Source: Candidatus Altimarinota bacterium (GTDB lineage Bacteria; Patescibacteriota; Gracilibacteria; BD1-5; UBA6164). Taken from it: 64,000 nt of DNA. The notes below the pieces were generated by a model. That model did not search any database and had not been told where the DNA came from. It saw only the letters and a list, made by a program, of their open reading frames with translations. The stretch is taken from contig JAQVFO010000002.1 in the NCBI GenBank assembly GCA_028697205.1, positions 186,001-250,000 of the forward strand. The letters run 5' to 3'. This document shows positions 8,550-53,514 of the stretch, in pieces. Position numbers and translations under genes: made by a program. How positions within the stretch are numbered: the first letter of the stretch is position 1; each line of letters begins with the position of its first letter.

Positions 8550-11393
8550 ATGTCAGATTTTCTGGAAGTCTATTGAGCTCGTACACATAATTTAAAAAAT
8601 ATTGATATAAAAATACCAAAAAATAAAATGGTTATTTTTACTGGTCTTTCATGATCTGGTAAATCTAGTCTTGCGTTTAATACAATATATAGTGTTTGAC
8701 AACAAAAATACTTAGAAAGTTTATCAAGTTATGCACGTATGTTTATTTGAGGAATCAATGAAGAAGCTGAAGTTGATGAAATAAAATGACTTTCACCAAC
8801 TATCAGCATAGACCAAAAGACAACAAATCGTAATCCAAGGTCTACAGTCTGAACTATTACAGAAATATATGATTACTATAAACTTTTATTTTTAAACATT
8901 TGAGTAAGAAAATGTATAAAATGCTGAAGTGTAATAAAAAAAGACTCATTAAATCAAGTTATTAAAGATATTTCATCTTATGAGCTTGAAACTAAGTTTA
9001 TGATAAAAGCCCAATTTTTAAGAGATAAAACATGATTGACAAAAGATTATATAAAGAAAGAGATTCTTGATTCTTGATTTATAAGATTTTCAATAGATGA
9101 TAAGGTACTTACAGTTAATGATGAGTTTGATGTAGATAGTAAAAAATCATACAATGTAGACATTATTATAGACAGACTTATTGTGAAAGATTTTTCTGAT
9201 AATGATTCAAGTGACACAAAAAGATTAAAAGATAGTATTGATTTAGCCTTTAAAACAGGTAATTGATTTATAAAAATTGACTTTATAATATGAGATAAAA
9301 CTATTTCAAAGAAATATTCAAATAAATTTGTTTGTAGTCATTGTGGACATATTCCAGAAGATTTAGATATATCATCTTTTTCTTTTAATAGTCACAAGTG
9401 AGCGTGTCCAGATTGTCATTGATTATGAGTAAAATCAGTTTTTTTGGAAGAAAATATAATAAATCCTAGATTAAGTTTAGAAGAATGAGCAGTGATAGTA
9501 CATTGATTTTGAGCATATTTTCATTCTTTGATAAAGGAAGTTTGAGAAAAATATAATTTAAATACAAGAGTTCCATACAAAGACTTAACAAAAAAAGAAA
9601 GAGAAGTAGTTATGTTTTGAACTTGAGATGATTTATATAAAGTTAAGTTTACAAATGAAGCTTGAAATACAAATACTTATACATCAAAATTTGAGTGAGT
9701 TATAAATACTTTAAATAGAAGATTTTTTGAATGATCAACTTTATGAGATTGAAAGTTAGACGATTTTGTTACTGAAATTGAGTGTCCAACTTGTTTATGA
9801 AAAAGACTAAAACAAGAAAGTTTATCAGTATATATTAATAACTTAAATATTTGAAATTTAAGTGAATTATCTATTTCTGATTCATTAGATTTTTTTAACA
9901 AACTAAAACTTAATAAGGAAGAAGAACAAACAGTAAAAAATGTAGTTAAAAATGCTAAAGAAAGGCTAGAATTTTTATCTTGAGTTTGACTTGAATATAT
10001 GACAATTTCAAGAAAGGCAAATACCTTATCTTGATGAGAAGCACAGAGAATTAGATTGGCAACTCAGATATGAGTAAAACTTGAATGAATTATATATGTT
10101 CTTGATGAACCAAGTATTTGATTACATCCGAGAGACAATGATATGTTAATTTGAAATTTGAAAAAACTAAGAGATATATGAAACACTTTACTCATTGTAG
10201 AACATGATGAAGATATAATGAGAGAAGCTGACTATATAATTGATATATGACCAGGAGCTTGAATTCACTGATGAGAAATTATTGCGATGTGAACAATAAA
10301 TGAGATTATAGACAATAAAAATTCTATAACTTGACCTTATTTATCAGGAGAAAAGCAAGTTATTATAGACAAAAAACTAAGAAAACTAGATAAGTATCTG
10401 TCTATAAAAGGTGCTACACAACATAACTTAAAAAATATAGATGTTTCTATACCTGTTTGAAATTTAACAGTAGTTACTTGAGTTTCAGGGTCTTGAAAAT
10501 CAAGTTTAATAAATGATATATTAGCAAATTATTTAGCTAATGAATTAAATTGAGCCAGCAAGCAAGTATGAGATTTTAAAGAAATAGAGTGACTTGAAAA
10601 CTTTGATAAAGTACTTGTTATAGATCAATCACCTATATGAAAGACTCCTAGAAGTAATCCAGCAACATATACTTGAGTATTTACACATATTAGAGATGTT
10701 TTTGCAATATCATATGAAGCTCAAGTAAGATGATATGGGCCAGGTAGATTTAGTTTCAATACACGTGAATGAAGATGTGAGGCTTGTGAATGAGATGGAG
10801 TTAAAAAGATAGAAATGCATTTTCTTCCACCAGTTTATGTTGAATGTGAAGAATGTTGATGAAAAAGATTTAATGCAGAAACTTTGTCGATTAAATATAA
10901 GTGAAAAAATATTTCTGATATACTTGATATGACAGTTGAAGAAGCTATATGATTTTTTGAAAATCATAAAAAAATATCAAATGTTTTAACAGTATTAAAT
11001 GATGTTTGACTTTGATATATTAAATTAGGTCAATCATCAACTACTCTTTCATGATGAGAGGCTCAAAGAATAAAGTTAGCAACTGAACTATCGAAAAGAT
11101 CTACATCTAAAACTGTTTTTATTCTTGATGAACCAACTACTGGTTTACACTTTCAAGATGTAGAAAAATTATTAAAAATATTACACTCACTAGTTGATAA
11201 ATGAAATACAGTTATAATAATAGAACATAATATGAATGTAATCTTAAATTCAGATTATATAATTGACATTGGACCTTTTGGCTGAGATAAATGATGAAAC
11301 CTAGTTGTAGCATGAAATATTGAGAAAGTAAAAAATTGTAAAGATAGTTTTACATGACAAGCAATTAATAAATATTTAAAACATAGTAAATAA
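8550..11393 (+). CDS. uvrA: Excinuclease ABC subunit A
   Basis: 947 aa, the normal length. It is the DNA-damage recognition ATPase of nucleotide excision repair. Two ABC ATPase halves are seen: P-loops GLSGSGKSS (about residues 32-40) and GVSGSGKSS (about 645), each paired with an LSGGEAQRI signature and a DEP Walker B. CxxC zinc motifs (CSHCGH...CPDC, CEACEGDG, CEECGGKR) are intact. P-loop glycines are a mix of UGA and GGU. The next gene starts 1 nt after its stop. uvrB and uvrC are not in the window. Confidence 0.98.
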
Positions 11394-15170: not shown

Positions 15171-17777
15171 ATGATTGTAGCTTTAGATTTAGAAACAACA
15201 GGTTTAGTTAAGGAAAAAGATTCAATAATTGAAATTGCCTTAATTAAGTTTGATGAAAATACTTTTGAAATTGTTGAAGAATTTACAACTCTGATCAATC
15301 CTTGAATTCCAATTCCGGATTTAAATATAAACATTACATGAATTAGTGATGAAATGGTAAAAGATTCACCATTTTTTGATGAATTAAAGGAAAAAATAAA
15401 AATATTTATATGAGATTCTCCTATTTTATGACACAATACGTTTTTTGATAGGGATTTTTTGATTGAAAAATGAGTTGATATAAGCTCAAATATTGTTTTA
15501 GATACATTTTTTTTAGCAAATTTTTTGTCGTTGAATTGCAAATCTATGAGCTTGGAATCATTAACTGCACATTATAAGATAGAATTATCAGGGGCGCATA
15601 GAGCATATAATGATACAAAAAGCACAGTTTTTTTATTTAAGAAACTGATAGAAGAATTTGAGTTATTAAGTGAAGATAGAAAAAAATTACTTAACTACTT
15701 ATTTTTAAATTGTGTAAATAAAAATTCTTTATACTTAAAAAATATTTTATTTAAAAAAGATGATAATTTAGATTTTGAAGATTTTGTAAAATTAATAATT
15801 AAGAATTTAAAAAAACAAAGAATACATTTAGTTGATAACTATGATAATAAACTAAGCAATTTAGAAGAATATTTTTCAAAACTAAAGGATTTTGAGACTA
15901 GAGAAAATCAAATTAGTATGGCAAAAAAAATATATGAAAATTTTTTTGATACAAAAAAAACTGTTATAGAGGCCCCAACATGAATTTGAAAAACAATTGC
16001 ATATCTAATCCCAGCAATTATTTATTCAAAGAAAGTGTGAAAAAAAGTGTTTATTTCAACAAAAACAAAAATTTTACAAGATCAAATTTATTATAAGGAT
16101 TTAGAAGGATTATCTAAATCTTTATGAATTGATTTTACTTATACGAAAGTTAAAGGAAAGAAAAATTATATTTCATTAAAATCATTATTTACTTTCATAA
16201 AAGATTTTGACATAGATTATGATAAATTGTCATTTTTGTCAAAGATACTTTTATGGCTATTTGATACAGAGTTTTGAGAGTTAGATGAACTTTTTTATTC
16301 AAGTAATGAATATAAATTTTTAAAATTTGTCAATTCTGACAATAATCAAATATTAACTGAAAAAAACCCTTATTTAAAGGAAGAATTTATTTATAAACAG
16401 AAAGTTAATCTAGACAATTCAGACATAGTTATAGTCAATCATAGTATGTTATTTACTGATTTAAAAAACGATTTTAATTATTTCTGAAAAATAGAAAATT
16501 TAATTATTGATGAAGCTCATTCTATAGAAGATATAGCTACTGAAAGTTTAAAAAATTCATTTTCTGCAAAATGAATAGAAGACATTATGAATTTTATTGA
16601 ATCTATATATAAAAATAATTTTTATGACTTAGCGAATTTTAAAGCAAAGAAAGAAGACTTATTATTAAATATAAAAGTTATTTTTGATTCATTTTATACT
16701 TATTTAAAAACAAAGACAAGTAATGAAAACTTTTTTATTAGTATACTAATTGATGAGTGATTTTATTCTATTCAAGAAGAGTATTTTTATACTATTATCA
16801 ATAAAAATAAAGAACTATTGTTAGATATCAAGGAAGAACTTCAGTCAGTAAACTATGACTTTTCAAGAGAATCAGCCTTTTTGGACAATATTGTAGACAT
16901 TTTGGACAAAATATATGATAGAAACAATGCTGATGATTTTATAAAAATCGCTTATTATTCAGAATATGATTGAGTAAAATTAGAATATACGGTGTTAGAC
17001 ATATGAAAATATCTAAGAATAAATTTTTGGGATTATTTAACAAATTGTTTTTTATTTAGTGCGACTTTATCAATAGCCAATAGTTTTGATTATATTAAAA
17101 AATCTTTACATTTAGAAGGTTTTGAATTCCTTCAATTTGATACTGATTTTGATTATTCTAAGCAAGCAACTTTATATATTCCCAAAGATTTATGAAGCAT
17201 AAAAAATAACTTTTCCAAAATTCAAGAGTTTTTAAAAGATATATTTCAAGTTTTGAGATGAAATACTATGGTTTTGTTTACTTCCTTAGCAGCAGTTAGA
17301 AATGTATATATAAATCAAAATTTCTTTGTGAAGTCGTTATGATCTAAGTTACTTGCACAATCAATATACTGATCAAAGAACAAAATCTTGGATACCTTTT
17401 TGTCAGAACACAATAAAAGTATAATACTTTGAACTGATTCATTTTGGGAATGAGTTGATATTCCATGAGAACCATTAAAATATCTTATCATACATAAAAT
17501 GCCTTTTGCAGTTCCAACAGATCCAATATATTTATCTAGAAGTAAATTGTTTTCTAATCCGTTTTCAGAATATTCAATACCTAAATCAATTTTGAAACTA
17601 AAACAATGATTTTGAAGACTTATAAGAACTAAGTCTGATAGTTGAGTTGTAGTGTTTCTGGATGATAGAATTTACTCAACAGAATGGTGAAAAATATTCA
17701 TTACTGCTTTTCCTAAAGATATAAAATTAAATATTACTTCAAGAGATGAAATTATAAAAAATATTAATTTACAATAA
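15171..17777 (+). CDS. dinG: DnaQ-family exonuclease fused to DinG-family helicase
   Basis: 868 aa. An N-terminal DEDDh 3'-5' exonuclease domain (DLETTG at residues 6-11, a DS-PILGHNTFFDRDFL motif near 85, HRAYNDTKST near 145) is fused to an XPD/DinG superfamily 2 helicase. Walker A is APTGIGKT (about 268-275) and the DEAH box is IIDEAH (about 444-449). The fusion is known from Firmicutes DinG. It probably acts in DNA repair or R-loop removal. The iron-sulfur cysteines of E. coli DinG are not evident. The Walker A glycines are UGA. Confidence 0.92.
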
Positions 17778-17863
17778 ATTTATTGATTTTGTAAATATGA
17801 AAATTTGGACTATTTTAAAAATCTATGATATTATATTTTAAGTATATTTTTTAAATAATTTTT

Positions 17864-18718
17864 ATGGATAATCAAACTAGTAGTGAATTTGATAATTCAA
17901 ATATATTTGATGAATTAACTCAAGATGTTGAACTAGAAAATAGTCTAAAAAAAATGAAAGAGACTAAAGATAAGAACTTTTTATACTATATATCCTTTTA
18001 TTCTGGGATATTAAAATCTATTAATTATGTATTATTAATAGTTTTTCTTTTGTCTTTTACATATATATTTATTCAAAAATCTGAGACATTTTATCAAAGT
18101 TCTTATTTGAATTTATTTTGTCCTGTATTGTTATGAGATGTAAGTAATTATGTATTAGATAAATGAGAAAATTGTTCTTGATTAAGTGTATTTAAATCTA
18201 GATTTGTTACAGATGAAGTTGGTACCTTAAAAAATACTCAATATAATAAAATAATTGATATATTACCAGATGTATATGTTTTAAATAATAATATCACTTC
18301 AAAAGAAAGAGTTTTCTTGTTAGATGAAACAAAAAACAGATTAAAAGTCTCAGATATACTAAAAGACTTTGATGAATTAAAAGGTTCTTTTATATCATAT
18401 GATAAATGAAAACTAGAATGTTGAGAATTATCTATTGATTCAGATTATAATATAAAAGTGGCATGTTCAACTTTTTCTTCTGATTGGGATGATGATATAT
18501 TATGATATGACTGAAATGATAAAAATCAAAAGGTAAAAGGAACATCAATTGCAATAGCAAGCAGTTTTTTAAATTATATTCAAACATCTTCAACTAAATT
18601 TACTCTTTTAAATAAACAAAAATCTTTTAACTTGTTACCACTATCAGAAGGTCTATATAAATATGAAACAGATTTTTCTATAGAACTAAAGTATAATTGA
18701 ACTAATTTATCATTTTAA
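17864..18718 (+). CDS. Single-pass membrane protein upstream of pilus genes, unknown
   Basis: 284 aa. The N-terminal 45 residues are acidic and cytosolic, one membrane segment follows (about 55-78), and the rest is an extracellular domain with a possible disulfide pair (CPVLLGDV...ENCSG). The topology (type II, short cytosolic N-terminus) resembles PilN/PilO-type pilus alignment proteins, but no motif proves it. It lies 8 nt before a PilO-like gene, then pilB and pilC, so it is probably a pilus or secretion component. Confidence 0.75.
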
Positions 18719-22635: not shown

Positions 22636-22665
22636 TTGTTTGACTTAAACACAAAAAAGTATAAA
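22636..22665 (+). promoter_or_regulatory. Probable promoter of the S-layer gene
   Basis: TTGTTT (22636-22641), an 18-nt gap and TATAAA (22660-22665). An overlapping TTGACT at 22640 gives a better -35 but a 14-nt gap. It would give an untranslated leader of about 245 nt before the ATG at 22916. Confidence 0.5.
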
Positions 22666-22671
22666 ATCTAG

Positions 22672-22915
22672 GCACATTAAATTTTAGATCTTTAACATCT
22701 ATATAAAAACACAAATAAAAATCCCAAGATTTTTGTTGTTGTTATGACTTTGGAAGAAAGTGGAAAACTTTAATCAATTTTCCTTTTTCTCCCAAAGTCG
22801 TGCACAATAGACTTTTGGGTTAAGGCTTTAACCTTTTTTCTAGCTTTTTAATAAAAAAGCTAATCATTTGGAGGTAATACTCCGTTATTTTATTTTTTTA
22901 ATTATAGTATACTTT
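22672..22915 (+). other. Long structured 5' leader of the S-layer mRNA
   Basis: No gene is seen here. A long imperfect hairpin spans about 22746-22799: GACTTTGG pairs with CCAAAGTC, with AGAA/TTCT and GGAAAA/TTTTCC pairs inside. It is followed by GGTTAAGGCTTTAACC, by AGCTTTTTAATAAAAAAGCT (about 22841-22862), and by GGAG/CTCC around 22870-22884. Such stacked hairpins may stabilise an abundant mRNA or control its translation. The GGAGG near 22870 is about 43 nt from the ATG, too far to act as a normal Shine-Dalgarno site. Confidence 0.55.
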
Positions 22916-25900
22916 ATGAGTAACTTATTTAAAAAAGTTACTTCTGCTGCTATGGCTTTAATGATAGTTTTATCTATCGTTAGTCCTGCTTCAGGAGTAA
23001 TGGCTGCATACTCTACTTTAGAGGCTGCTAATAAATTAGCTTCTCTTGGAGTTATAGTTGACCAATCAGCTAATCCTGCTAATTACAGATTAGGTGATTC
23101 TATAACGAGAGGAGAAATGGCTAAAATTACTATGAAATTATCTGAAACTCAAGTTGCAGATATGTGTGAATGAAAATTCAGTGATTTAACTTCTGCTGAT
23201 TGGGCATGTAAATATGCTGAAGCTGGGTTATCTGCTGGTTTCTTTGCTGCTAACGCTACTTTCAGACCAATGGATAGTGTTACTAAAATAGAAGCACTAA
23301 AAATGGTTATGCAAGCTAGAGGTATTGCAAAATCTTCAAATTCTGACTGGAAAGCTGCTTACGTAGAAGCTGCTGTTGATGCAGGTGTATTAGAATCAGC
23401 TTTTTCTGATTATGATACAGTTGCAGTTAGAGGATGGATTTTCCAAACTGCTGTTAATGCTGTAGAAGGTGTATCTACTACTGGTGATAATTTACTAGAA
23501 GATCTACTTGGTGGATTAACTGGTGATACTACTGGTACAGGTGATACTACTGGTACAACTGGTGATACTACTGGTACTACTAGTTCTACTTCTGCTTTAA
23601 CTGTAGATTTAAGTCCTTCATCTATTATGGCACAATCAGTACCTTCTGCTGGTACAGTTAATTTCGGTACTTTCGATTTAACTGCTGGTAATGAAGATGC
23701 TACTGTAAATTCTATAAAATTTGTTAGACAAGGTCTAGGTTCTAGAACTGACTTTACAAGAGTATGGATGGAAAAAAATGGTGTTAGAGTTTCTGGTAGA
23801 CAAACTGTTTGATCAGATGATTCTGTTTACATCACTTTCTCTCCTGCTTTAGTTATTAAAGCTGGTGCTACTGAGTCTTTAGATTTAATTGCTACTTTAA
23901 GTGGTAATTCTACTAACTCTCAAAATAAATTTACAATAGTTTCTGCTTCTGATATTTCTTCTGAAGCTTCTGTATCAGGTAATTTCCCTATCTCTACAGA
24001 TACTATGACTACTACTTCTTACAAAGTAGTTCCTGTTGCTTATGATGGTGCTGGTTCACCTTCTACTTATAGAGCTGGAAATACAAATGTAGAATTAGGA
24101 CAATTTAAATTAACAAACAATGCTACTGATGATAAATCAGTTACATTTAAAGCTATAACTCTTAGAAATGATGGTACAGGTGATGCTGCTGCTAACCTTG
24201 CTAATCTAGGAATATATAGAAATGGACAAAAAGTTTCTTCTGATGTTACTTTTGATGGTAAAAGCGTAACTTTTACTGTTAATGATTTAGTTGATTTTGG
24301 TAGAACTGAAACTTACTATATCAGAGGTGATGTAGTTTCTGCTGAATTAACTACAGGAGATGATTATACATTTACTTTAAGATATACTGATGATTTATCA
24401 GTTGATGAAACTGTTACTGGTTTTAGATCTACTATAACTGTAGGTACTACTGCTATGGCTACTTATAAAGTAAGTGGTGGTGATATAATCCTTTCAAAAG
24501 CTACTGATGCTCCAAGTTCACAAACTGTTGCTCCAGGAACTAATGAAGCTGTATTATTATCTGCTGACTTAAAAGTTTCTCAACCAATTACATTAGAAGA
24601 TTTAGACATAGGTTTTACTACAGCTAGTACTGGTGACCTAAGTAAAGTTTTCTCTTCTATTAAATTAATGATTGGAAATTCAGTAGTTGCTACTTATACT
24701 CCAGGAACTACTCCTATTACATTATGAGCTAAAGGTACTACTCCTTGAGGTATTACTTTAGAAGGTACTACTACTGTAAATGCTGATACAACATTAAAAA
24801 TTCTTGCTAACGTAAAAACTAATGCTCCAACAGGATCATATACATTAGCTAATGTTTTACCTAATGATTTCAAAATAAGAGAATATGCTTCTAATGGTAA
24901 TGCAATCCAAACTAACCAAATGGTTGGTTCTGCTAACTGAGTTGCTACTGCAATTGGTTCAGCTGCACTTACTATGACTAGAAATGATGGTATAGCTGAT
25001 CAACAATTAGCTGTAGGTTCTTCTAATCAAACATTGATACAATTCTCTATGAGAGCTAATGATGTATCTGATGTAACTGTAACTAAATTAACATTTAAAA
25101 CATGAGGTACAACTAATGTTGATACTCGTAATGTTACAAACTTAAGATTAATGGTTAATGGAACTACTGTTTCTACAAAAAATATGTCAACTTGATTAGC
25201 TGACTTCAACGATATAAATGTTGTTGTTCCTAAAAATACTGATGTAACTTTACAAGTTGTTGGTGATTTTACTACTGCAGTTAATGCTGGTGAAATTTTC
25301 CAATTATCTTTAAGTAATGTTGAAGCTAGAGATAGTAATAGTATTACTTTAGCTCAACCTACTCTTAATGATTGAGTAAAATATACATTTGCTTGAGCTG
25401 GAAGTGCTACATTTACACTTAACTCTTCTACTCCAAATGCATCTATGTTAACTCCATCTTCTTCTGAAGGTGAACTTGCTAGATTTACTTTAGCTGCTAC
25501 TAATGATTCATTAAAATTAACAGATTTATATGTTTACAATACTGGATCTGCTGATTTATCATCTAGTGTTAAATCTATCGGATTATATGATGTAAACTGA
25601 GCTAAATTAGCTGGAGGTTCAGTTCTTGGAACTGGTACAGTTCAATTTGCTCTAGGAAGTTCTTCTACTTTCGTAGTACCAAAAAATACTTCTAATACTG
25701 TTGTATTAATTAAAGCTGCATTTAACGATGTTACTGATGCTGCTCAAACTAATAAAACTGTTCAATTAGCTGTTGGTACTCTATCTGGAGTTACTGCAGT
25801 TTCTGGAACTTCTAGTGGTGCTAGATTAGTTTCTGAAGCTACTTGAAACGAAGTTACTTCTGTTGATAGTTCTGCTGCAATTGCTAAAGCTCACCTACTT

Positions 25901-26356
25901 GTTAGATCTAAACCAGTTGTTGCTATAAGTACTGCTGCTACTGCTAGTACTCATACATTTACTGTTACTGCTGATGCTAACAATAGAATTACTTTAACTG
26001 GAACTACTTTCTCTATAACTAATCCATCAGCTAATGTTGGTACATTCAAACTTTATAAAGATAGTGAAACTTCAGGTAATGTTATTGGTTCAGGTACTGT
26101 TGCTGCTAATGGAACTATAACTTTTGATGCTGGATCTTTCGTGCCAACTGAAATATCTGCTGGTACAACTAAGACTTTCATCTTCAAAGTTTCTCCTGAA
26201 TTACAAACTGCTGCTGTAAACGCAAAAAGAATATTTAGAGTTGAAGATGTATCATATATGGATATGATGAATACAAACGGAAATGTAGAAATTACTTCTG
26301 TAAAAGACTACACAAATGTTGGTATTCCAACTACTGAATCTACTTTCACTTACTAG
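22916..26356 (+). CDS. S-layer protein with SLH domains
   Basis: 1146 aa. The signal peptide ends near SGVMA. Three SLH-type motifs follow (about residues 35-190; RLGDSITRGEMAKI, FRPMDSVTKIEALKM, YDTVAVRGWIF), which bind cell-wall polymers. A Gly/Asp/Thr linker of repeated GDTTGT (about 203-222) leads to about 900 residues of Thr/Ser-rich beta domains, Ig-like in look. Composition and promoter suggest a major surface protein. Gly is mainly GGU/GGA with only about eleven UGA, unlike neighbours. The ATG at 22916 was chosen over an in-frame TTG at 22868 because it starts a proper signal peptide. Confidence 0.92.
23522..23577 (+). repeat. Short tandem repeat in S-layer linker
   Basis: A 17-bp unit (GGTGATACTACTGGTAC) occurs at 23522, 23540 and 23561, separated by 1 and 4 nt. 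It encodes the GDTTGT linker between the SLH region and the beta domains and could vary in copy number between strains. Confidence 0.85.
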
Positions 26357-26510: not shown

Positions 26511-27719
26511 ATGAAAAAATTTATTATTTTTATAGCTTTTATGTTTTTTGCATCTCAAGCTAATGCACTTAATATAAGTCTACAAGATAACCAGACATTT
26601 TTTCCTGGAGCGTGAGTAAAGGATTTATTACCAATTAATATTAATATAGATAATGATAATGAAATAACTAAAGAAAAATGATTTTCTATTGTATTACAAG
26701 ATGATGCAAATATAAGATTTAGTTCTGATTTATCATGAATTAGTATAACATGAAGTTGATCTTCAAAGATATTAACTTGAGCTTCTATACTTCCAAATAT
26801 GAGAGTTATAAAATTTAATGTATCATCTAATTTAATGAAATGAGATAATTTTGCTATAAGTTGAATTAAATTAATAATTTACTCAAAAGCACAATGAGGT
26901 AAACCAATTTGAATTGATATAAATTGAGATAACCAAGCGGATTCTCAAACAATAAATACAGTTAGAGTTGACTCAACTTATACATATTCAGATCAATTAG
27001 CTCCAAATGAAGTTTTTAATTTTACCGGAAGTATAACTGATAACAAGATAACTATGTCAGCAGATATGCCTTGAGATGTGGATTTCCAATGAGTTCAGAT
27101 AGACAATTACAATGCAAGCTGAGCAATTAAATCAAGTTTCTTTAGGCCAGATTTAATTAATTTCTCATATGATATATTACCCTGAACAGATTATTTTAAG
27201 GTTAGAACTGTTGATATAAGAGCAAATTATTCAACTTGATTAACTTTTCAATTTGATTACTTTAGAAAACCAATTATAGAAACTTCAACTTGAACTACTA
27301 CAAGTACATGAGAAACAAATACAGAAACTTGAACTACTGAAGTTATTTGTGCTCAGGTTATAACTTATGGAGTAGATCCAGTTACAAATAAATGTGAAAC
27401 ATTTGCAACACCTTGTGATGTTCCTTGAAGTTATAAACTTGTAAATTCTTGTGTACAAGCAGTAGAGAAATATGTATGAGTATTTTCTACAAAAAATTGA
27501 GTATTATTAAATAAATTTGTTGCTATAATTGATAGTTTCATAAATAGAAACATAAAAGCTAATCTTACTCAAACTAAGAAAAATGATATAATTATTATAA
27601 GAAATTATATAGTTAAATTATTAGAAAGTTATGATAAGACAACAACAAGAACACAAAAGATAAATGTAATAAATGAGCTAGCACAATCTATAAAAGATTT
27701 AAAAGATAGTTTAAAATAA
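26511..27719 (+). CDS. Secreted protein of unknown function, next to S-layer gene
   Basis: 402 aa. A signal peptide (KKFIIFIAFMFFASQANA) is followed by a beta-rich domain like the cohesin/dockerin-associated extracellular type (about 20-140; 'DLLPININIDNDNEI', 'FSIVLQDDANI'). A Thr-rich linker (about 262-285), a four-Cys segment (about 288-322) and a helical C-terminus (about 335-402) complete it. It could be an accessory surface or pilus-tip protein. Here UGA is the main Gly codon, in contrast to the S-layer gene just upstream. Terminators flank it on both sides. Confidence 0.8.
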
Positions 27720-42641: not shown

Positions 42642-43829
<1,188 letters not shown>

Positions 43830-43914: not shown

Positions 43915-44232
43915 ATGAATAAAAAGAATCCACAAAAGATAAGAATTAGTGTAAAATCTTTTGACCATAGATTATTAGATGAAGCAGTTAAGAAAATTGT
44001 TACTATTGCTAAAGATTCTTGAGCTGTAGTTGTTTGACCAGTACCATTACCTACTAAAGTTGAAAAGGTAACTGTTAACAGATCAACATTTGTTAACAAA
44101 GATGCTAGAGAACAATTTGAAATTAGAAGACATAAAAGAATTATTGATATTCAAGAACCTACTCCAAAAACATTGGAAATGTTACAAGATATCAATATTC
44201 CAAGTTGAGTTTGAGTTGAAATAAAAGCATAA
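43915..44232 (+). CDS. rpsJ: Ribosomal protein S10
   Basis: 105 aa. Small-subunit protein uS10, also NusE in antitermination. [25 protein letters not shown] and [10 protein letters not shown] are diagnostic. It follows tuf as in many genomes, but the rest of the S10 operon (rplC, rplD and so on) does not follow; rpmB comes next instead. Confidence 0.98.
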
Positions 44233-53168: not shown

Positions 53169-53438
53169 TTATAAAGCAACAAATCAAGTTATAAATGCTA
53201 TAACTAAAGCATAAATTGCAACGGCTTCAGCAAAAGCGATATAAAGGATAGCTAATCATTGTATTTTACCAGCAACTTCTGGATTTCTTCCTACTGCTTC
53301 TAGTGCTCATTTACCGATTAAACCGATACCGATACCAGGACCAATAGCTCATAAACCAATAGCTAATGCCATAGCAAGTTCTTTATAAATGCTAATAACT
53401 TGTACAGTTTGTGTAGCAGCTTGTGCAACTTCATTCAT
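53169..53438 (-). CDS. atpE: ATP synthase F0 subunit c
   Basis: 89 aa, a two-helix proteolipid. The ion-binding Glu is at residue 71 (AFAEAVAIYALVIAF) and the glycine-rich first helix has GPGIGIG. The Gln found at this place in Na+-type rings (GPGVGQG) is Ile here, and Ala follows the Glu, so a proton ring is more likely. The ATG at 53436-53438 gives the usual short N-terminus. Confidence 0.97.
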
Positions 53439-53514
53439 ATTTTTTAAAGTTAAATTATAAAAATTAAAATTTGAAAAAAGAAAACATATTTTTCTTTTTT
53501 CCATATCTTAATTT

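What the first reader, a model, noticed from the sequence alone, without database searches (positions are those of the whole stretch)
22916..26356. S-layer gene avoids UGA glycine codons
Most genes here use UGA for nearly all Gly. The S-layer gene uses GGU/GGA for almost all, with about eleven UGA. Those are mainly in one stretch (about 24725-25845), with one each at 23171 and 23810. EF-Tu is intermediate. The 26511 gene, 150 nt downstream, returns to UGA. This suggests UGA is decoded more slowly or by a scarcer tRNA, so abundant proteins are selected for GGN. Alternatively the gene was acquired from a standard-code donor and is drifting.
Basis: partly seen in the sequence, partly recalled or inferred. 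Interest (0 to 1): 0.72.

Follow-up and report, generated by a model that had tools for sequence, protein, structure and literature searches.

The report
S-layer gene avoids reassigned glycine codon

Summary
The S-layer gene (22916-26356) uses UGA for 11 of 97 glycines, against 82% in ordinary genes (p = 5e-51). It is the extreme of a general trend: L7/L12 1/13, L34 1/11, EF-Tu 15/38, EF-G 26/58, 25 ribosomal proteins 164/303. With glycine left out, the S-layer gene still ranks second of 193 sampled genes in codon adaptation, behind L7/L12. Its Ala, Thr, Ser and Phe codons shift the same way as in ribosomal genes. In all 24 relatives that use UGA appreciably, S-layer, EF-Tu and RplL genes use less UGA than uvrA. 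Composition, synteny with uvrA and orthologues in every relative reject recent transfer. Best explanation: translational selection against UGA in highly expressed genes. Whether the cause is speed, tRNA supply or accuracy is unresolved. Extra finding: the S-layer mRNA starts with a conserved, covariation-supported structured leader absent from Rfam, found once per genome in 47 of 60 genomes and always upstream of the S-layer gene. The codon effect parallels reassigned-codon avoidance in Blastocrithidia; I found no earlier report for UGA=Gly bacteria in the library searched.

The parts
22916..26356 (+). S-layer-like (SLH) surface protein gene, 1146 aa, UGA 11/97 Gly; signal-peptide-like N-terminus (by eye)
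   Evidence: SLH Pfam match over cutoff and in all 15 aligned relatives
24725..25846 (+). stretch holding 9 of the 11 UGA codons (codons 604-977)
   Evidence: post hoc p about 0.02, not shared by orthologues
22640..22667 (+). predicted sigma-70-type promoter TTGACT-16-TAAAAT
   Evidence: TTGACTT...TATAAT-like sites at similar distance in most relatives
22746..22799 (+). leader hairpin P1 (GACUUUGG...CCAAAGUC)
   Evidence: z -6.2 for the leader; double-sided changes at 11 of 13 pairs across 25 of 28 genomes
22791..22819 (+). alternative helix P2 (CCCAAAGUC / GACUUUUGGG) sharing a strand with P1
22818..22833 (+). near-invariant GGTTAARGCTTTAACC element
   Evidence: core model match 22773-22837, 69 bits
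26411..26446 (+). intrinsic-terminator-like hairpin and T run after the gene
   Evidence: read from sequence
42642..43829 (+). EF-Tu, UGA 15/38 Gly (intermediate)
53169..53504 (-). ATP synthase subunit c, UGA 4/12 Gly
8550..11393 (+). UvrA, ordinary-gene control, UGA 68/84 Gly
26511..27719 (+). downstream gene, UGA 22/26 Gly
43915..44232 (+). ribosomal protein S10, UGA 4/4 Gly (too few to judge)

Best explanation
The genome belongs to the Gracilibacteria-type code-25 bacteria, in which UGA means glycine. AT-biased mutation (GGA to UGA is one G-to-T change) has made UGA the commonest glycine codon in ordinary genes. UGA is nevertheless translated less well than GGU and GGA, so genes whose mRNAs occupy many ribosomes keep GGN by purifying selection. 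The S-layer gene, probably encoding one of the most abundant proteins of the cell, is at the extreme. Shown here: the depletion, its gradation across translation genes, the parallel shift at other amino acids, and its recurrence in relatives. Inferred: high S-layer expression and the biochemical reason UGA is inferior. A likely reason is that a single tRNA-Gly(UCA) gene serves most glycine codons, with one fewer strong codon-anticodon pair and without C36, which from general knowledge is a glycyl-tRNA synthetase identity base in E. coli.
For: S-layer 11/97 against ordinary pooled 3406/4129 UGA, p = 5e-51; 25 ribosomal proteins 164/303, p = 1.5e-27. With Gly left out and leave-one-out scoring, S-layer ranks second of 193 genes, after L7/L12 and before EF-Tu. 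Parallel shifts, S-layer against ordinary: GCU 86 v 48%, ACU 77 v 48%, UCU 61 v 28%, UUC 46 v 9%; ribosomal and elongation-factor genes shift the same way. In 24 of 24 relatives with uvrA UGA above 15%, S-layer, EF-Tu and RplL use less UGA than uvrA; medians 0.78 uvrA, 0.05 S-layer, 0.21 EF-Tu, 0 RplL; p = 1.2e-7 each. A C14 paralogue, 47% identical over 457 aligned residues of the S-layer C-terminal half, has UGA at 16 of 19 shared Gly columns against 4 of 19 in the S-layer gene; discordant pairs 12 to 0, p = 0.0005. Long ordinary genes stay UGA-rich (1198 aa 0.94, 1671 aa 0.86). One class-I release factor gene found; one tRNA-Gly(UCA) and one tRNA-Gly(UCC) gene detected; one UCA tRNA match in 27 of 29 relatives. 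The S-layer gene has its own promoter-like site, structured leader and terminator, in line with strong expression.
Against: No expression or proteome data could be consulted; expression is inferred from gene identity. Among 163 unlabelled genes, UGA fraction does not correlate with the non-Gly adaptation score (rho 0.07, p = 0.39), so the effect is visible only at the top of the range. The trend is uneven within ribosomal proteins (S3, S5, L4 and L16 at 0.73-0.77). Tests for accuracy selection, conserved against variable Gly, are not significant (MH odds ratio 0.72 S-layer, 0.85 UvrA, 1.91 EF-Tu), so the mechanism is undecided. Relatives are not independent samples.
Confidence: 0.9

Rival explanations
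1. The S-layer gene was acquired from a standard-code donor and is drifting towards UGA.
For: Low UGA by itself would fit; many relatives' orthologues have no UGA at all.
Against: GC3 0.09 is close to the host's; homologues in all 60 genomes searched; in 20 relatives uvrA and the S-layer gene lie on one contig 1-25 kb apart, same strand in 15; native translation genes share the bias.
Confidence: 0.03
2. UGA is avoided for decoding accuracy (misreading as Trp or other residues, or premature release) rather than for speed or tRNA supply. This is a sub-version of translational selection.
For: Proteomics of a related BD1-5 bacterium found 97 Gly-unique against 3 Trp-unique UGA peptides and single peptides for other residues (PMC4032931). 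The S-layer and UvrA odds ratios lean the right way.
Against: Conserved-site test not significant and opposite in EF-Tu; tRNA-Trp(CCA) here has an ordinary 5-bp anticodon stem (sequence), unlike the 4-bp type discussed as able to misread UGA (PMC13092985).
Confidence: 0.3
3. A mutational or transcription-associated bias in highly transcribed genes, or avoidance of the TGA trinucleotide, lowers UGA without translational selection.
For: The most strongly transcribed genes may have a different mutation spectrum.
Against: Off-frame TGA is as common in the S-layer gene as in uvrA; many amino acids shift to specific preferred codons, both U-ending and C-ending; in GC-richer relatives the same genes shift toward lower GC3.
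Confidence: 0.04

Closest known systems
Depletion of in-frame reassigned stop codons in highly expressed genes of Blastocrithidia (PMC12153298)
   Same: Reassigned codons are under-used in cytosolic ribosomal protein genes and fall with protein abundance and codon adaptation index.
   Different: Eukaryote with UAR=Glu and UGA=Trp; here a bacterium with UGA=Gly, only one class-I release factor found, and the reassigned codon is the majority codon.
Translational selection on codon usage in prokaryotes (PMC2891978 and others, listed)
   Same: Highly expressed genes share preferred codons at several amino acids.
   Different: The strongest contrast is at a reassigned codon that is the genome's commonest Gly codon.
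Genetic code 25 of Gracilibacteria and Absconditabacteria
   Same: In-frame UGA at Gly, tRNA-Gly(UCA), no RF2 found (literature).
   Different: A published suggestion that high TGA use goes with abundant TGA-decoding tRNA and more efficient translation (PMC10746230) does not fit the avoidance of UGA in the top expressed genes.

Membership tests
Genetic code 25 (UGA=Gly) | in-frame UGA in conserved genes | tested here: met
   57 window ORFs open under code 25, 995 in-frame UGA; UvrA and EF-Tu orthologues align
Genetic code 25 (UGA=Gly) | tRNA-Gly(UCA) with G1:C72, C2:G71, G3:C70, U73 | tested here: met
   C6:1823-1901 minus; criteria from PMC8629427. ARAGORN labels it SeC from the anticodon
Genetic code 25 (UGA=Gly) | no RF2 | tested here: met
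   one class-I release factor only; not typed by motif, but UAG is used as a stop (S-layer gene), which RF1 reads
Translational selection | shared preferred codons in highly expressed genes at several amino acids | tested here: met
Translational selection | correlation with measured expression | not testable with these tools
   no transcriptome or proteome for this genome
S-layer (SLH) protein | SLH domain | tested here: met
   one SLH match just over cutoff; all 15 family members match, best 9.5e-16
S-layer (SLH) protein | forms an abundant surface lattice | not testable with these tools
   inferred from SLH domain, signal-like N-terminus and codon adaptation
Recently transferred gene | foreign composition or patchy distribution | tested here: not met
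   GC3 0.09; homologues in 60 of 60 relatives and conserved synteny
Known Rfam RNA family (leader) | match over gathering score | tested here: not met
   only sub-threshold matches, mostly to miRNA models

The most novel reading that the evidence does not exclude
Two linked novelties. (1) In UGA=Gly bacteria the reassigned codon, although the majority codon, remains translationally inferior and is kept out of the most expressed genes across the clade. (2) The S-layer mRNA of Gracilibacteria carries an undescribed, single-copy structured leader with two mutually exclusive helices (P1, P2) and a near-invariant 16-nt element, which probably controls or stabilises one of the most abundant transcripts of these uncultured episymbionts.
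Probability: 0.75. Interest if true: 0.66.

Novelty: new variant of a known kind. Interest (0 to 1): 0.56.

Why it matters
How a stop codon becomes an ordinary sense codon is usually pictured as complete once the codon is common. Here a reassigned codon is the commonest glycine codon yet is still kept out of the most expressed genes throughout a clade, so reassignment looks functionally incomplete. That makes testable predictions for ribosome speed, tRNA charging and UGA error rates, cautions against reading codon frequency as tRNA abundance in these bacteria and their phages, and offers a way to pick out abundant proteins in uncultured code-25 genomes. The conserved S-layer leader RNA is a concrete new target in organisms whose gene regulation is almost unknown.

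Tried and rejected
Horizontal transfer: rejected on composition, synteny and distribution. Length effect: rejected, since long ordinary genes are UGA-rich. Trinucleotide avoidance: rejected, since off-frame TGA is normal. Secretion or SLH class effect: rejected, since the 26511 gene, the C14 paralogue and shorter SLH homologues use UGA freely. UGA stretch at codons 604-977: post hoc p about 0.02, not conserved. Accuracy test on conserved Gly: not significant. Gene-level correlation among unlabelled genes: none. The Rfam tRNA search missed tRNA-Gly(UCA) at its threshold; a pattern search found it. Campbell et al. 2013, which described UGA=Gly in SR1, is not held in the library, so an earlier remark on highly expressed genes there cannot be excluded. 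rpmB was not found in the window. RNAalifold on the leader core alone predicts only the 3' hairpin; P1 needed a pairing search anchored on its 3' arm.

Full report
Observation. The window is AT-rich (24.5% GC) and reads as code 25, UGA=Gly. The 1146-aa SLH protein gene at 22916-26356 uses UGA for 11 of 97 glycines (UGA 11, GGA 27, GGU 58, GGG 1), while all other listed window genes pooled use it for 82.7%. The nine UGA at codons 604-977 cluster with p about 0.02 after the fact, and orthologues show no such stretch.

Own genome. The assembly has 1.27 Mb in 19 contigs. In 146 ordinary ORFs pooled UGA is 3406/4129; in 25 ribosomal proteins 164/303 (p = 1.5e-27); S-layer p = 5e-51. Among the lowest are L7/L12 1/13, L34 1/11, S-layer 11/97, L22 1/6, thioredoxin 2/8, S8 3/9, ATP synthase c 4/12, EF-Tu 0.39, S2 0.40, EF-G 0.45 and S1 0.46; two tandem 220-aa secreted proteins are at 0.43 and 0.48. 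Key identities were checked with Pfam; the other ribosomal proteins were named by eye.

Is it general codon adaptation? Yes. S-layer against ordinary: GCU 86 v 48%, ACU 77 v 48%, UCU 61 v 28%, UUC 46 v 9%, UAC 35 v 13%. Ribosomal and elongation-factor genes shift the same way; AGA (98 v 83%), GAA and CAA also rise in them. Gly shows the most significant contrast. A score trained on ribosomal and elongation-factor genes, with glycine excluded and the scored gene left out, puts L7/L12 first, S-layer second and EF-Tu third of 193 genes. Among 163 unlabelled genes there is no relation (rho 0.07), so selection is visible only at the top.

Relatives. S-layer homologues were found in all 60 genomes searched. 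I compared S-layer, uvrA, EF-Tu and rplL in 29 of them plus the own genome. In the 24 genomes with more than 15% UGA in uvrA, all three were lower than uvrA in every genome (p = 1.2e-7 each); medians 0.78 uvrA, 0.05 S-layer, 0.21 EF-Tu, 0 RplL. Genomes are related, so these p-values overstate independence. Several full-length S-layer genes have no UGA although uvrA of the same genome has 29 to 50 (G016, G029, G030).

Transfer. Rejected. GC3 is like the host's; in 20 relatives the gene lies on the uvrA contig 1-25 kb away, on the same strand in 15, 10-25 kb away in 13 of the same family. A C14 paralogue, 47% identical over 457 aligned residues of the C-terminal half, has 41/51 UGA; at 19 shared Gly columns the discordant pairs are 12 to 0.

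Mechanism. One class-I release factor gene was found. tRNA-Gly(UCC) has one gene and tRNA-Gly(UCA) one, at C6:1823-1901 minus, carrying the published identity pattern (criteria). The UCA tRNA match appears exactly once in 27 of 29 relatives. With equal gene number it serves over four times as many codons in the ordinary genes sampled. Slower or supply-limited decoding is my preferred reading; accuracy is the main alternative, and the conserved-site test does not decide. These last points are inference.

Leader RNA. Upstream of the gene lie a promoter-like site (22640-22667) and a strongly folded leader (z -6.2); downstream is a terminator-like hairpin. The leader holds hairpin P1 (22746-22799), an alternative helix P2 sharing its 3' strand, and GGTTAARGCTTTAACC (22818-22833). 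P1 keeps pairing with double-sided changes at 11 of 13 pairs in 25 of 28 genomes; paired fraction 0.90 against 0.69 when arms are swapped between genomes. A model built from 28 leaders finds exactly one copy in 47 of 60 genomes, in 47 of 47 on the same contig and strand upstream of the S-layer homologue, 35 within 350 nt and 12 at 1.1-1.3 kb. In the five genomes read, the longer gap holds a glycosyltransferase gene. Nineteen of the 47 genomes were not used to build the model. A stricter core pattern hits 18 contigs among 84,980 species genomes, 17 titled Gracilibacteria and one an unnamed MAG. Rfam has no match over threshold. The 16-nt element could also be a DNA palindrome, and P1 was not recognised in G002, G004 and G048.

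Known work. Avoidance of reassigned codons in highly expressed genes is described in Blastocrithidia. For UGA=Gly bacteria I found no such report in the held library, with the limit that Campbell 2013 is not held. A published suggestion that frequent TGA implies efficient TGA decoding in these hosts is not supported by these data.

Noticed in passing
window 22746-22837; relatives: Conserved structured leader of the S-layer mRNA: long covarying hairpin P1, alternative helix P2, near-invariant GGTTAARGCTTTAAC(C/T). One copy per genome in 47 of 60 genomes, always upstream of the S-layer gene on the same strand; not in Rfam 15.
   Followed up: partly
L054:1486-1564 (G000 C6:1823-1901 minus); relatives: tRNA-Gly(UCA) has an atypical D-arm, is missed by the Rfam tRNA model at E 0.001 and called SeC by ARAGORN; its D-arm and anticodon arm are identical in the six other genomes printed while acceptor and T stems vary.
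   Followed up: partly
L055, L056, L057, L068, L071: In some relatives a glycosyltransferase gene (group 1/4) lies between the leader element and the S-layer gene, suggesting a shared transcript.
   Followed up: partly
L049:16709-17371 and 17500-18162: Tandem, very similar 220-aa secreted proteins with reduced UGA (0.48, 0.43) and high codon adaptation; the first has no Pfam match: probably abundant surface proteins.
   Followed up: no
G041 (L110, L078): uvrA uses UGA for 93% of Gly although its GC3 is 0.32, so UGA dominance there is not explained by AT pressure alone.
   Followed up: no
S-layer and EF-Tu alignments, first fifth: UGA is rarer in the first fifth of S-layer (4%) and EF-Tu (11%) genes than in later fifths (7-9%, 12-28%); uvrA shows no such gradient.
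   Followed up: no
L041:18104-18550 minus: A second ATP-synthase-c-like gene beside the ribosomal operon has 16/20 UGA, unlike the one at 53169 (4/12); annotation by eye only.
   Followed up: no
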